Positions 33,701 through 42,700 of a stretch of DNA of 64,000 nt are shown one piece after another; position 1 is the stretch's first letter; each line of letters opens with the position of its first letter. The notes beneath the pieces are model-generated. The model worked only from the letters and a program-made list of their open reading frames with translations, did no database searches and was not told the DNA's origin. The translations under genes and the position numbers were made by a program. The DNA comes from Romanomermis culicivorax (taxonomy: Eukaryota; Nematoda; Enoplea; Mermithida; Mermithidae): contig CAWUHX010000077.1 in the NCBI GenBank assembly GCA_963922205.1, positions 1,116,001 to 1,180,000 of the forward strand, given 5' to 3'.

Positions 33701-36700
33701 GATTTAAAGAAAAGGATTGGGTTCTGCTCAAAGTAGATAAGCAGAAAAAACTAGGACTACCATGGTCCGGTCCGTTCATAGTTACGGACATTTCGCGAGA
33801 AGCAGAGAATGTTGTCACCATTGTACATTGGGACAACCCGCTAAATCGCCAAACAGTTTCAATCAGCAGGTTGAAACATTTTCGTTACGAGACCACTAGG
33901 GTCTTGCCGCGAATAGCGCGAGCCAATCAGGACGCGCCACGTGACGAAAACACGTCACTTTCCAATATGGCACAAACAGTTACGACTGGAGCGCCGATTC
34001 AAATGAAATCATTTGGAAATTCGCTCAAGGCGAATCTATGCGCGATCTCGCGCTGATTTTTTTTTTATTTTATGTACATATCTCGCGCGTGTAAGTACTA
34101 ATTTTAATTAAAATTGTATTAATTTGTAATATTTATCGCGTTTATGTAGTATTCGTGTTAATTTTGTAAATTTTTCATATTAATCTCAGACTTTGGGAAA
34201 AATTCTTCGGAATTTTAGACCAAAGTGACAACCCAAAAAATTTCTGACATTTTTTCTAAAAAATAAATTTTCAAATTTTTCATTTTTTTTTCAAAATCAA
34301 ATTATAGCTGCCCCGCTTATCTGAATTCTAAACTTCCATCGGAAGGAAGAAGTAAAATATTCCCCGAACTGCGATATAAAGGAAATTAGCAGAACTGCTA
34401 AATTAAACTTTTTCAGCGTTCAAAAATTTTAAATAAATTTATCAATTTATTATTCGAAAACAAAAATTTCGAAAAGAAAAGAGATGGGAAAGGGCGCGCG
34501 GAACCGCCAACAAGCTCCGACGCGCGAGTGGTCGCACACAGAGCGCCACGTTGAATACGGCAGGGCCCAGCACCGCCAAGACAACCGTTTTTTCTTTATT
34601 GACGGTAAGTTTCGAACTTATTTTTATCAAATATTCTTGGAAACCGCAGGTAATGCCCAGAAGTCACTGGAAGACCAGCTCGGCGCCCCAAAGGGCAGAC
34701 GAGGTTAGAACCTAGAGGGAACGAAAAATGGGAGTACTGAGAAGCGGAAGCTCGAAGCCAAGCAGGGAATTTCCAATTTGGAAATATACCTGATACCACC
34801 AAGAGCTATACGATTCAAGGGAAACCTAGAACCTTGGGTTCAGCCCGTTTAAAGTTTTATCATTTCAAAAATTTATCAAAAATTATTTATTTTCAAATCA
34901 AATCAAATCATATCACTTTTTCGATATCAAATTCATTAAAAATTATCAATTTCGAGCGCTATAAAAATTGTAAATACAGCGCCATAAATGGAGCGTAGTT
35001 GGTCGCTCAAGCAGCTGGTCAGAGATTGGTGTCCGATCAAGTGGTGGACAATCGGATCAGGTCTACCCTCCCCAACATATAGAGGTAGCAAGGGTAAGAT
35101 TTAGTAAGGTGTTAGTTGCCTACCAGCTCAATGTTTGTATATCAGTGGCTCACCTAACAACCTGCACTAAACTTAATTTTCTGCGAAACTTAACCCGCTT
35201 GGTGTTGTGGTGCTGGTGTAGTATAGACCCGAAAATGCGCTGAAAAAAAAAGGGGAATAAAACACTAAAATTAATAGTACTTTATGTTTAGATTATAACG
35301 TCAAACGGGCCGTACGAATCCACGAACTGGATCAGTGGTTTAAAGCCACATTTGGGTACTGGCCGGCCAATCCCAAGGAACCTCGAATGGTAGACATTGG
35401 GAAGGTCAGCCAGGTACTCCATTTTATCCGAGAAGTGTCAATCTTCAGAGGACAACCAGTTTGTGGTTTCGACGTTGAAAAAGTCAACCAGGATAAGGTC
35501 GCCGCCTTGTTCAAAACAAGGGAGGTCGACAATCCAATGGGGAAGCAGTTTGCCCGATATATCAGCTTCGCGCTAACGAACGGTCAAACTTACGTTATTG
35601 ATACAACGTCGATGATGATCAAAGAGTGGACCAGCCTCCACGACTTCTTGAACTCCGACATGCTCTTCGCCGGATATGCCGTGCTGGAAGATCTGGTGAG
35701 TATCTATAACGTTTGTGGCGCAGGGCGAGATAATAAGGACAGGGACAAAACTGTCCCCTTACGGGAATTTCTAAGAAAGACCAAAGGTCGATACTTTGAC
35801 TTAGACCGTTTCGCCCTCACCATGGTAGGAGTAAACCTGGAGAAGAAATGCTTTCAGACAGGTATATGTCCCGAAACTTTTCGGTTAAAGGGACTGTTCA
35901 CGGAATTTTATTTGATAGACGTGGGCCCCTACCAATATGACTTTTCGTTAAAAGCGAACCGTGATCGGTTTGCCAAAAGGGGTATATTGCCGGAAGAGCT
36001 CAGATACGCCGCTCTAGACGCATACTACTCCTTATTGGTCATGTTTGCCGCCATTCACTATGGCATGGCCGATCAACTGCTTATGCAAATGCAGATTTTC
36101 GACCATGACAAGGTGGATCCCAAACAGATCAACACCATTGCCCTCCATTTTTATCAGCAATATCTAATGATTCCGGGCAATGTGAATCGAGAAATGGGGC
36201 TAGGTACCCCAGTTATGGAAACCGATCAGGTTCAACCAAACATGGTCTATCACATGATGAAGTGTGAGATGTATAACCGTTGGGCGGTACAGATGCAGGG
36301 AAATAACACAGGTTATTATACCGCGCCCAGGGAGTGTAATCCAGTCCGTCCGCAGGGAGTTCAGTTGCCAAGTGGTTTCTACCCACTACTTCCAAGAGAT
36401 AACAAACCACTGAAGGACGACGGATACACAACAGATAGCGATCCCAACGAAATCCAGGACGTCCAGATACCAGACTGGGTTAATATTTCAAAAGATATCC
36501 TGGAAAATCTCAAGTCAGGTGGAACCTACTGGGATTTAGACGGGAAAATTTCTTTGACTTTATACGAAAACGCCAAGCTATACTGGCAACAAGCCGGGAA
36601 GCCCGATACCATTCCACAAGAGGTGTTTTCCTCTAATAACCACTACCCAGTGGGTATCGAGGGCCATAGACAGGCCTATAAGACCAATTTTTACACGCCA

Positions 36701-39700: not shown

Positions 39701-42700
39701 AGCCAACAAGGCCAAAATAGAGGCCAGGATGGAGGTCAAACCCGAGGCCAACCAGGTCAGAGGGGGTACTATCAAGGTAGACCTCGAGGAGGCTACCGAG
39801 GCGGCGGGCAGCAGCAGTAAATAGCCGCAAAAATTTTGGCCCAAAAATTTCTTTTTTTTGTACATATATTTTTACTTATTTCATAAAACACAAAACCCAA
39901 AAACACTAATAAAATCACAAAAAATCCAAAAAAAAAAAAAATCAAAAAACAAAAAATCCAAAAACATTTCTTTTCGGTGCTGCTGGCCATCAAAAATCTC
40001 TTTTTTGACAAAACCGGTGCAAAAACGCAACCGTAAAAAATATTTTAACTTTTGGCCACATTCTTGCTCAAATTTTTTAGCGCATTTTAAATTTTGTGAT
40101 ATCCGTACAACCCCGCGTCGTCTTTTTGTATCGTAATATAATCTCGTATTTTAGTTTAATTTAGAAAAAATAGAGACGCGGGAAGTCGATTTGCATGCGG
40201 TTAGACCCACGGCCAACGAATTGACACAGCATGCAGACCGAGCGGCCGAGCCCGAAGCCGACCACACATCCGGCACCGACGTTTACGTCATACTCCTTAG
40301 GGCAGGAGGTTATTCCATCAATGCCGAGGTCAAAATGGACGTCACTTGCCAGCCATTGCGGCGAAGCCCTTGGTATTCGTTGTGTCCAACGACCAGCACG
40401 GGAGTTCTATTAGGACAGACTGTGAAACGGGAGTCCGGTGAGACAAACTGTTTATCAGGAGTCAGCCGGAATTGTAGATTTTTTCTTTTTGATTAATTCT
40501 TTTAATGCCGGGGTAACCCTGCCAAAAGTTTTTTTTTCTACCTCCCGTAGGTCGGTTTCGACGCGCGAGGGATGTTGGGCACCCTGTTGATGCCAATTTC
40601 GTGTGGGGAAATCGACATGCAAATCGACGACAGGGACGACCAGCAGCGCAGACATTTGCATAGAATGGAGCGCCAAAGAAAGACGAAAAATGAAAGTGAA
40701 ATCATTCTTCACTTAATATCGTTTTATATTATATTCTTGGTACTTTTGCTGGCGTCCCCAAATATAACTTTCCCAGCAACTTGTTTTGTTTATGAGTATT
40801 TCACTGTGGTGTACCCACATTCGTTTTACATATTTCGTCGGACTTATTGCTTACTATATTCGTTTATTTGTTTAGATTATTCGCATCGACGAAGGCGGAG
40901 GGCCAGAGGCCCAGGCGCCGGCTTACATCAAGTAAGTTTTGGGAAACCCCTTTTGGGTTATACCCAAGTAAGTTTATCCCTGAGGGGATTCCTTGTCTCA
41001 TCTAGGAGACTGCGGAGGTCTTTGGTAAGGCCCCCGTATTTGGAACAAAGTTTATCTTTGTTGTTGTAGGTCTGGGGACAAACGGACTGTTGCACAGATC
41101 ACCGAGGCTTAGCCAAGGTATCAGTTCTAACAGGTCAGTTCAGACCCAATCTTTTCTTACGCCTCTTAAGGAAAGACCTGCACAACAAAAAGATCAGATC
41201 CAACATTTATAGGCCTGCAAGACATTACGTATTATTACTTGCACTACAAGCTGGATTGGTCGCGTACATCCTGGTCGTATTATACGGGCTTGAGCTACGT
41301 TTCTTCCACAGCTATGGTATGCAAAATTCGTCCCACATATTCATTTTCCTCCGACTGATGCAGTTTTAAAATTATAGATCAACTATTTCTGCAGTTGTGA
41401 ACTTAACTTTGCAATATTCATCTCAAAGCCTCATGACAGAATGATTAAAACAATCACCGATTAAGATTGAATAGGACAACTGAGACTTAATCGACGATTG
41501 GCTTAATCGGAGATTAATATTACAGTACTCTGAATCGTAAATCGGTGATCATATAGCTGAAAAATTGCCGAGTAAATCGGTGATCATATAGCTGGAATGA
41601 CGACTTGGAAAGTAGTTGATCCTGAGTTTTCAATATGTAAAAAGCTCGTTTTCTGGCAAGGAATGATCGACAAACATTGATGCTTTGCAATTCTATAATT
41701 TTTTCATGACTTAGCTGAGTGGAGCATGCTTCCAAGTCTTCAATTTCAATTCAATCAAATTCATCAATTTTTGAACTCCGTCCCTTCGGACAATCCCAAA
41801 TTGAATTCGATTTCTTTATGATCATACCTTGGTAGGTATCAAAGAGTGAGATCATCTATTGGTTGAATTAGCGGGTTTATACTTTTCGTGTTTTTCGTGG
41901 GGTTTATACTTTTGATGACGCTCATTCTCAAGTTTACACAATGAAAAATTACATTTGAATTCTGTATATGCTCGCACATTTCTTCATTAAACGTTCAACA
42001 TTTTATATAGTAATCGTTCAGACAAATCGATTTCAAAATGACTCAAAATTACTGCATGATTTTTTATTACCTTTGTATTTTCAAAAAATAAGCATTTTTT
42101 TGTGATTCATGAATTTTGATTCATCGGAGACAGCGGGAAAAATTCGTTCTTTGAAACACACTATGCATAGTATAATCCAACGAATACGAATTCGATTATG
42201 ATCGTTTGTCATTGATTACAGGATAATGATGGAGTGGCCGCAACAATCAGTGCACACAGTATAATGGTGAAACAGGGTTTATTGGAGATTTAAACTTGCT
42301 GCTAGCAGGTTGGACAATCTCCAATTAAAGGTGACATTTTTACATTGGAGATTTTTTGAATCGGCTTTGTTTCATATGAAAAAACTAATCGAAGTTTCTT
42401 ATTTGACTTTGATCAGCGATTTGATCGAAGATTGAACCTAGTCGACCTTCTATCATTCTGACCTTATACCTTTAAATAAATAAAATTGCCGTCTACATTA
42501 TCAAAGATTCGGGAAGGTTGTCTTGTATAGTCATATTCACAAAATGTAGGTTTTTAGTTTGAAAACAAAATCATATTATTATTATTTATTCCAGTTTGAA
42601 ATCAGAGCAAAATTTTCTACATTATACTATTTTTTCTAGGTACTGTTTGTGTACCCTTTCTTCCGACGCCGGAGCATTTCCGATTGTGCCCTGTCTATTG

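What the first reader, a model, noticed from the sequence alone, without database searches (positions are those of the whole stretch)
35292..39820. An intact LTR retrotransposon carries a DEDDy exonuclease gene where env would be
Seen: the second ORF lies between gag-pol and the 3' LTR of a young element. It has DXE (Asp29, Glu31), a motif II Asp (102) and Y-X3-D (Tyr207, Asp211) in the order and spacing of RNase D/WRN/MUT-7/Nibbler exonucleases. Established: host MUT-7 and Nibbler act in small-RNA pathways that silence transposons or trim their guide RNAs. Inference: the element may have captured such a domain to trim or destroy small RNAs, to process its own RNA, or to assist replication. 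I know of no described gypsy-type element with this cargo.
Basis: partly seen in the sequence, partly recalled or inferred. Interest (0 to 1): 0.92.

Follow-up and report, generated by a model that had tools for sequence, protein, structure and literature searches.

The report
Retrotransposon carrying a divergent exonuclease gene
A young, many-copy jumping element in a mosquito-parasitic nematode carries, where retroviruses keep their envelope gene, a large conserved gene whose start looks like a very divergent RNA/DNA-trimming enzyme; similar cargo was already described in rotifers, so this is a new variant rather than a new kind.

Summary
Window 26509-41187 is a 14.7-kb Ty3-type LTR element: LTRs 612/615 identical, one gag-pol ORF, and a second ORF (35387-39820, 1,477 aa) before the 3' LTR. 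Assembly size and contig number match Romanomermis culicivorax. It is no one-off insertion: 147 scored places, the window's included, are 97-100% identical in the domain; 105 of 147 have frames of at least 1,400 aa without a stop in it. pN/pS is 0.07-0.14 along the ORF. The five DEDDy residues are unchanged in 20 copies compared with the window; in 12 others only Glu62 varies (Lys in 2). The DEDDy assignment is remote: an unguided profile alignment puts all five residues in register but with low hhalign probability; one profile's only PDB hit is a MUT-7 homologue, not significant; Pfam finds nothing; AlphaFold confidence is low.

'No described element with this cargo' is wrong: bdelloid rotifer LTR elements carry DEDDy ORF3s (PMC5408684). 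New here: the phylum, the long RNA-binding-like tail, possible splicing from the gag start, strong constraint. Mechanism is inferred.

The parts
26505..26508 (.). AAAA, left copy of a possible 4-bp target-site duplication (right copy 41188-41191)
   Evidence: weak because A-rich.
26509..27123 (+). 5' LTR, 615 bp, TGTTG...CAACA
   Evidence: 3 differences from the 3' LTR.
27126..27142 (+). Candidate primer-binding site (begins TGG, two bases after the LTR); tRNA not identified
   Evidence: 16 of 18 copies identical over 27116-27150; the assignment is inference.
27220..34056 (+). gag-pol single ORF, 2,278 aa: protease, RT, RNase H, integrase; sub-threshold capsid match
27245..27250 (+). Candidate splice donor GAG|GTAATA after 8 gag codons plus 1 base; in frame with the ORF2 acceptor
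   Evidence: Present in 18 of 18 copies fetched; in-frame join, as are three other GTs in the first 480 bases of gag. No RNA evidence.
35290..35291 (+). Candidate splice acceptor AG in front of the extended ORF2
   Evidence: AG in 50 of 50 loci, the window copy included; alignments of annotated R. culicivorax proteins begin exactly at this exon start in 10 of 26 proteins.
35292..39820 (+). ORF2 (env position); 1,508 codons from 35294, 1,477 from ATG 35387
   Evidence: (105 of 147 places with frame >=1,400 aa and no stop in the domain), pN/pS 0.074-0.140.
35294..36160 (+). DEDDy exonuclease-like domain (D60, E62, D133, Y238, D242)
36161..37243 (+). Conserved region of ORF2, residues 290-650, no Pfam match
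   Evidence: pN/pS 0.074; 36149-37300 scanned at E<=10, none.
37244..38680 (+). Low-complexity, acidic then basic region; includes NLS-like KEKVRRRKRIGKAKRRR at 38180-38230 (my reading, no predictor run)
   Evidence: pN/pS 0.105; 27-bp tandem units at 38343-38424.
38681..39283 (+). Conserved region of ORF2, residues 1130-1330
   Evidence: pN/pS 0.090; 38900-39500 scanned, two matches far below cut-off.
39284..39817 (+). Basic, RGG/RGR-rich C-terminus, RNA-binding-like (inference)
   Evidence: pN/pS 0.140.
40573..41187 (+). 3' LTR, 615 bp

Best explanation
The window holds one recent insertion of an abundant Ty3-type LTR retrotransposon family of Romanomermis culicivorax (species by assembly size, contig count and the names of protein relatives). 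In the env position it carries a long accessory gene. Shown: the gene is element-borne, open in most scored places and under strong purifying selection, with all five DEDDy positions kept in the 21 young copies compared. Supported but not proven: residues 1-289 contain a very divergent DEDDy 3'-5' exonuclease of the MUT-7/WRN/RNase D group. Inferred: the protein is made from a spliced mRNA that joins the first eight gag codons to base 35292; basic NLS-like and RGG tails bring it to the nucleus and onto the element's RNA. There the exonuclease trims 3' ends of the element's RNA or cDNA, or of RNAs bound to it, as an accessory to replication and RNP handling. It is not an envelope protein of known type.
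For: Linkage and copies: 147 scored places at 97-100% domain identity; 108 of 147 with frames >=1,400 aa, 3 of these with a stop inside the domain that the tool reads through; the end of pol lies about 1.2 kb upstream in 30 of 30 top loci, the window copy among them. Selection: window plus the 20 lowest-ranked of the 147, pN/pS 0.085 in the domain and 0.074-0.140 in the rest, which was not part of the query. Catalytic residues: 21 of 21 for all five; in 12 other copies (80-98% identical, picked for long frame or divergence) D60, D133, Y238, D242 12 of 12 and E62 10 of 12. Homology: hhalign of the paralogue profile against 32 DEDDy sequences (5 from PDB hits, 27 from viral contigs) gives one 147-column alignment with all five residues in register, score 20.3 against a maximum of 18.3 in 40 column shuffles and 9.9-14.0 for six single-sequence control segments. 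Pairwise z above 2 for 7 of 32 against 0, 1 and 1 of 32 for three control segments. The only PDB hit at E<=10 with profile A2 (177,635 sequences) is 'Exonuclease mut-7 homolog', E 0.83, motif III in register. Not env: highest Kyte-Doolittle 19-residue mean is 1.5, no Pfam env match. Splicing signals. Youth: intra-element LTR identity 99.3-100% in 9 of 11 measurable pairs (12 tried).
Against: No Pfam match. hhalign's own figures are poor: probability 1.9%, E 0.025; 14.3%, E 0.0019 (motif III only); 5.1%. BLASTP to E. coli RNase D is not significant, and RNase D's own pairwise best alignment covers motif III only. Single-sequence and 19-row AlphaFold models have mean pLDDT 37 and 46; Foldseek lists WRN exonuclease at ranks 4, 6, 7 and EXD2 from rank 31, but no match has E below 0.019, TM-scores are about 0.15, and glyoxalase-type proteins rank as high or higher. 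A second profile (A5) hit only a primase in PDB, E 2.3. In annotated paralogue fragments D60 is D in 8 of 14 and D242 is E in 3 of 6. E62 is K in L169, whose frame is open, and in L172. Places were ranked by protein score, which biases pN down inside the domain. 11 of the 20 lower-ranked copies have a stop somewhere in ORF2, as do 6 of 12 copies within the domain and 1 of 31 rows. No transcript, localisation or activity data.
Confidence: 0.62

Rival explanations
1. ORF2 is a structural or RNA-export protein of the CERV type (Cer1 of C. elegans): its fold descends from a DEDD nuclease but catalysis is dispensable; it binds element RNA in the nucleus and helps unspliced RNA out. (Overlaps with the best explanation except for catalysis.)
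For: CERV shares N-terminal gag exons with GAG, is nuclear and is required for genomic RNA export (PMC10309623, passages); here a donor and acceptor could also join the gag start to a downstream ORF, with NLS-like and RGG stretches. Maelstrom and EXD1 are catalytically inactive DEDD derivatives that bind RNA (stated in PMC5408684). E62 is K in one copy with an open frame.
Against: All five catalytic residues are kept in 21 of 21 younger copies, more than a purely structural role demands. No sequence comparison with CERV was made.
Confidence: 0.25
2. ORF2 counters silencing: the exonuclease shortens Dicer siRNAs or their 3' overhangs, lowering RNA-directed methylation of the element.
For: Dicer/RdRP siRNAs with DNA methylation are proposed to silence transposons in the clade I nematode Trichinella, and methylation machinery is said to be present in R. 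culicivorax (PMC4323106, passages); the family is abundant.
Against: No direct evidence; the PIWI and 22G pathways that inspired the idea are reported absent from this clade.
Confidence: 0.12
3. The five residues are a coincidence and the domain is an unrelated, element-specific fold.
For: No Pfam hit, low AlphaFold confidence, non-significant Foldseek list with glyoxalase-type proteins at the top, low hhalign probabilities; profile A5 does not hit a DEDD chain.
Against: Unguided alignment puts all five in register over 147 columns; control segments do not behave so; WRN and EXD2 both appear in the fold list.
Confidence: 0.13

Closest known systems
DEDDy ORF3 of bdelloid rotifer LTR retrotransposons (Juno, Vesta; Rodriguez, Kenefick and Arkhipova 2017, PMC5408684)
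   Same: Retrovirus-like LTR element, extra ORF after pol, DEDDy/RNase D-like 3'-5' exonuclease domain, no canonical env.
   Different: Nematode host; no dUTPase Pfam match in gag-pol, whereas all Juno and Vesta have dUTPase; residues here read D-E-D-D, there DEED; ORF2 is 1,477-1,508 aa with low-complexity, basic and RGG parts. The paper found intragenomic ORF3 variation mostly neutral for the env and GDSL ORFs sequenced (section 3.6); here strong constraint.
Terminons (giant Penelope-like elements of rotifers) and Dada DNA transposons with DEDDy domains
   Same: Mobile elements carrying DEDDy exonuclease domains (PMC6431247 and PMC3706591, passages).
   Different: Different element classes; in Dada (two species named) the domain lies inside the transposase.
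CERV of Cer1 (C. elegans LTR retrotransposon; PMC10309623, passages)
   Same: Nematode LTR element; extra protein sharing the gag start through splicing (here only predicted); nuclear/RNA-related role plausible.
   Different: The word exonuclease does not occur in that paper's text; homology not tested.
MUT-7/Nibbler, WRN, EXD2, RNase D exonucleases
   Same: Motif order and register of D, E, D, Y, D.
   Different: Below detection by Pfam; longer spacing (motif I-II 73 and II-III 105 residues here against 57 and 66 in E. coli RNase D, from the alignment); more than 1,200 aa of C-terminal sequence without a family match.

Membership tests
Ty3/gypsy-type LTR retrotransposon | Paired LTRs with TG...CA ends | tested here: met
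Ty3/gypsy-type LTR retrotransposon | Domain order protease-RT-RNase H-integrase | tested here: met
   protease 893-985, RT 1274-1433, RNase H 1525-1626, integrase core 1945-2041.
Ty3/gypsy-type LTR retrotransposon | RT phylogenetic placement in Ty3/gypsy | not tested
   No tree built; 38-39% identity to RT regions of two other elements in the window.
DEDDy 3'-5' exonuclease (RNase D/WRN/MUT-7 group) | Four acidic residues plus Tyr in Exo I-III order | tested here: met
   exceptions in diverged copies listed in the Against line.
DEDDy 3'-5' exonuclease (RNase D/WRN/MUT-7 group) | Significant match to a family profile in Pfam (PF01612 is the accession I recall) | tested here: not met
   no family reported.
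DEDDy 3'-5' exonuclease (RNase D/WRN/MUT-7 group) | RNase H-like DEDD fold | tested here: inconclusive
   low-confidence model, no significant match.
DEDDy 3'-5' exonuclease (RNase D/WRN/MUT-7 group) | Metal-dependent 3'-5' exonuclease activity | not testable with these tools
   Needs biochemistry.
Rotifer-type DEDDy ORF3 | Common descent with Juno/Vesta/Athena ORF3 | not tested
   Rotifer sequences not held; the profile search listed 66 proteins, 65 named R. culicivorax and one with its name cut off, within that tool's word and length limits.
Envelope glycoprotein | Membrane anchor and a known fusion domain | tested here: not met
   Highest 19-residue hydropathy mean 1.5; no Pfam env match. 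No signal-peptide predictor was run.

The most novel reading that the evidence does not exclude
A nematode LTR retrotransposon encodes, from a gag-start-spliced mRNA, a nuclear RNA-binding exonuclease that trims Dicer-made siRNAs in a host lineage without PIWI, i.e. a retrotransposon-encoded silencing suppressor that explains the family's high copy number.
Probability: 0.1. Interest if true: 0.88.

Novelty: new variant of a known kind. Interest (0 to 1): 0.5.

Why it matters
Among the papers that my searches listed (open-licence PMC only), DEDDy cargo in LTR elements is described from bdelloid rotifers alone, where its function is not settled. An abundant, young family in a nematode with pN/pS near 0.08 in this ORF says that the protein earns its keep, gives many natural variants to study, and suggests that capture of such exonucleases by retroelements recurs across animal phyla. 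If the nuclease is active, its substrate would tell whether retroelements use it to finish their own ends or to blunt small-RNA silencing.

Tried and rejected
Single-sequence AlphaFold model and 19-row model: too uncertain to carry the claim. Pfam at loose E-values: nothing for the domain; sub-threshold hits elsewhere ignored. First protein search with residues 1-620 of the full ORF: 3,945 candidates, none at E<=1; the domain alone found 26 proteins, 25 named R. culicivorax and one with its name cut off; public gene models chop the element, which explains the difference (inference). Viral-contig scan with ORF2: none. 'Chance insertion of a processed host gene in one copy': rejected. Env hypothesis: rejected. 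Phylogeny with MUT-7, Nibbler, WRN and rotifer ORF3: not done; sequences were not obtained. Search of the genome for host DEDDy genes (PF01612): not completed. Alignments A1, A3 and A4 were set aside as misaligned before modelling; A5 was used.
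Full report
What is there. The window is part of a 359,112,060-bp, 595-contig assembly. These figures equal those published for Romanomermis culicivorax v2 (359.1 Mb, 595 scaffolds; PMC10879605, passages), and 65 of 66 protein relatives listed carry that species name, the 66th name being cut off. At 26509-41187 lies a 14,679-bp LTR element: 615-bp LTRs with 3 differences, TGTTG...CAACA ends, AAAA on both flanks. 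A single gag-pol ORF (2,278 aa) has protease, RT, RNase H and integrase in that order. ORF2, 35387-39820, starts 1.3 kb after pol and ends 0.75 kb before the 3' LTR.

It is a family trait. A search of the assembly with the domain (residues 32-289) scored 147 places out of 3,003 first-look candidates, all at 97-100% identity, the window's own among them; 108 of 147 have an open frame of at least 1,400 aa, and 3 of these 108 have a stop inside the domain, which the tool reads through, leaving 105. A second search with a diverged annotated relative reported 300 matches with 150 of 2,405 candidates scored, part of them listed; copy numbers are lower bounds. In 30 of 30 top loci (window copy included) the end of pol precedes ORF2 by about 1.2 kb, and 10 of 26 annotated relatives hold both gag-pol and ORF2 pieces. 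Of 12 LTR pairs fetched, 11 were measurable over 520-570 bp; 9 were 99.3-100% identical and 2 were 93-94%. Copies differ more from each other: apart from one 103-bp piece, their LTRs are 89.7-97.4% identical to the window's, so several lineages seem to have amplified recently (inference).

It is under selection. For the window and the 20 lowest-ranked of the 147 places, pooled pairwise pN/pS is 0.085 (exonuclease domain), 0.074 (residues 290-650), 0.105 (651-1129), 0.090 (1130-1330) and 0.140 (RGG part). Places were ranked by protein score over residues 32-289, so the first figure is biased low; the others were not in the query. In the 30 top loci plus window (the window copy counted twice) residues 290-735 gave 0.065. 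Against: 11 of the 20 have a stop somewhere in ORF2, none of them in the domain, and 1 of 31 rows has one in the extended domain.

Is it a DEDDy exonuclease? Against: Pfam finds nothing, BLASTP to E. coli RNase D is not significant, and two AlphaFold models are poor. For: D60, E62, D133, Y238, D242 are unchanged in 21 of 21 young copies. In 12 further copies, 80-98% identical and picked for long frame or divergence, only E62 varies (K in 2 of 12); 6 of these 12 have a stop in the domain. With a profile of paralogues against 32 DEDDy sequences, hhalign, given no positions, aligned 147 columns with all five residues in register: score 20.3, against at most 18.3 (mean 12.9) in 40 column shuffles and 9.9-14.0 for six control segments, the controls being single sequences; its own probability is only 1.9% and E-value 0.025. 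Two earlier tests against five sequences aligned motif III only: score 28.4 against at most 8.8 in 30 shuffles, and 24.2 against at most 17.2 in 8 shuffles and 15.0 for one control. Pairwise z-scores exceed 2 for 7 of 32 family members (median 0.9, best 4.2), against 0, 1 and 1 of 32 for three control segments (best 2.7). Profile A2 hits one PDB sequence at E<=10, a MUT-7 homologue, E 0.83; profile A5 hits only a primase, E 2.3. Foldseek of the weak model lists WRN at ranks 4, 6 and 7 and EXD2 from rank 31, none significant, among glyoxalase-type proteins. I put the DEDDy assignment at about 0.85; it rests mainly on the conserved residues and their register.

Annotated paralogue fragments are less clean: E62 16 of 16, D133 5 of 6, Y238 6 of 7, D60 8 of 14, D242 D in 3 and E in 3 of 6. 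They have predictor-made junctions and many are probably from decayed copies (inference); in genomic DNA the domain is contiguous in 11 of 12 copies and split by a frameshift in one.

Anatomy beyond the domain. The highest 19-residue hydropathy mean is 1.5, below the usual transmembrane level (recalled: 1.6); residues 650-1100 are low-complexity, KEKVRRRKRIGKAKRRR looks like an NLS (my reading), and the last 180 residues are basic and RGG-rich. The frame opens upstream of the ATG to an AG at 35290-35291, AG in 50 of 50 loci. A donor GAG|GTAATA eight codons into gag occurs in 18 of 18 copies and joins in frame, giving MPNERIPR-DYNVKR; three other GTs in the first 480 bases would also be in frame. 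In C. elegans Cer1, CERV shares gag's first exons and is needed for genomic RNA export (PMC10309623, passages): a working parallel, not a tested homology.

Mechanism. Most likely an accessory RNP protein whose nuclease end trims 3' ends of element RNA/cDNA or bound RNAs; every step after the sequence is inference.

Known or new. PMC5408684 (abstract, sections 3.1-3.4, 3.6, 4 and the legends read) describes DEDDy ORF3s in Juno and Vesta LTR elements of bdelloid rotifers, acquired at least twice, and shared with Athena elements. It reports mostly neutral intragenomic variation for the env and GDSL ORFs sequenced. PMC6338049 (passage) calls the domain well known in LTR elements. Seven literature searches, of which I saw listings and, for nine papers, passages or sections, showed no description of this cargo in a nematode. 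Hence: new variant of a known kind.

Noticed in passing
window 50280-57566 (+): A second, ORF-split Ty3-like element with a viral fusion glycoprotein (Monjiviricetes_fusion PF24664, E 4e-17, at 52533-53603; chuvirus-like is my recall) lying between gag (zinc knuckle, 51143-51793) and pol (54348 onward): an unusual gag-env-pol order.
   Followed up: partly
window 101-4307 (+): A third Ty3-like element with protease and RT/RNase H/integrase, 38% identical over 424 aa of the RT region to the focal element.
   Followed up: no
window 38343-38424: 27-bp tandem units inside ORF2; frames of 1,510 and 1,519 aa among the copies differ by 9 aa, which could be one unit.
   Followed up: no
P0001, P0005, P0011 (public R. 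culicivorax proteins): Motif III Asp242 reads Glu in 3 of 6 annotated paralogue fragments, while it is Asp in 33 of 33 genomic copies examined, the window included.
   Followed up: partly
P0002, P0007, P0029: Public gene models with names such as DUF4216, Tsr3 or 'Phage protein' contain pieces of this retrotransposon family: annotation contaminated by transposon fragments.
   Followed up: no
L053/L071 and L054/L072: Two copies whose own LTRs are only 93-94% identical although nine others have 99.3-100%: inter-element recombination, older insertions or assembly joins.
   Followed up: no
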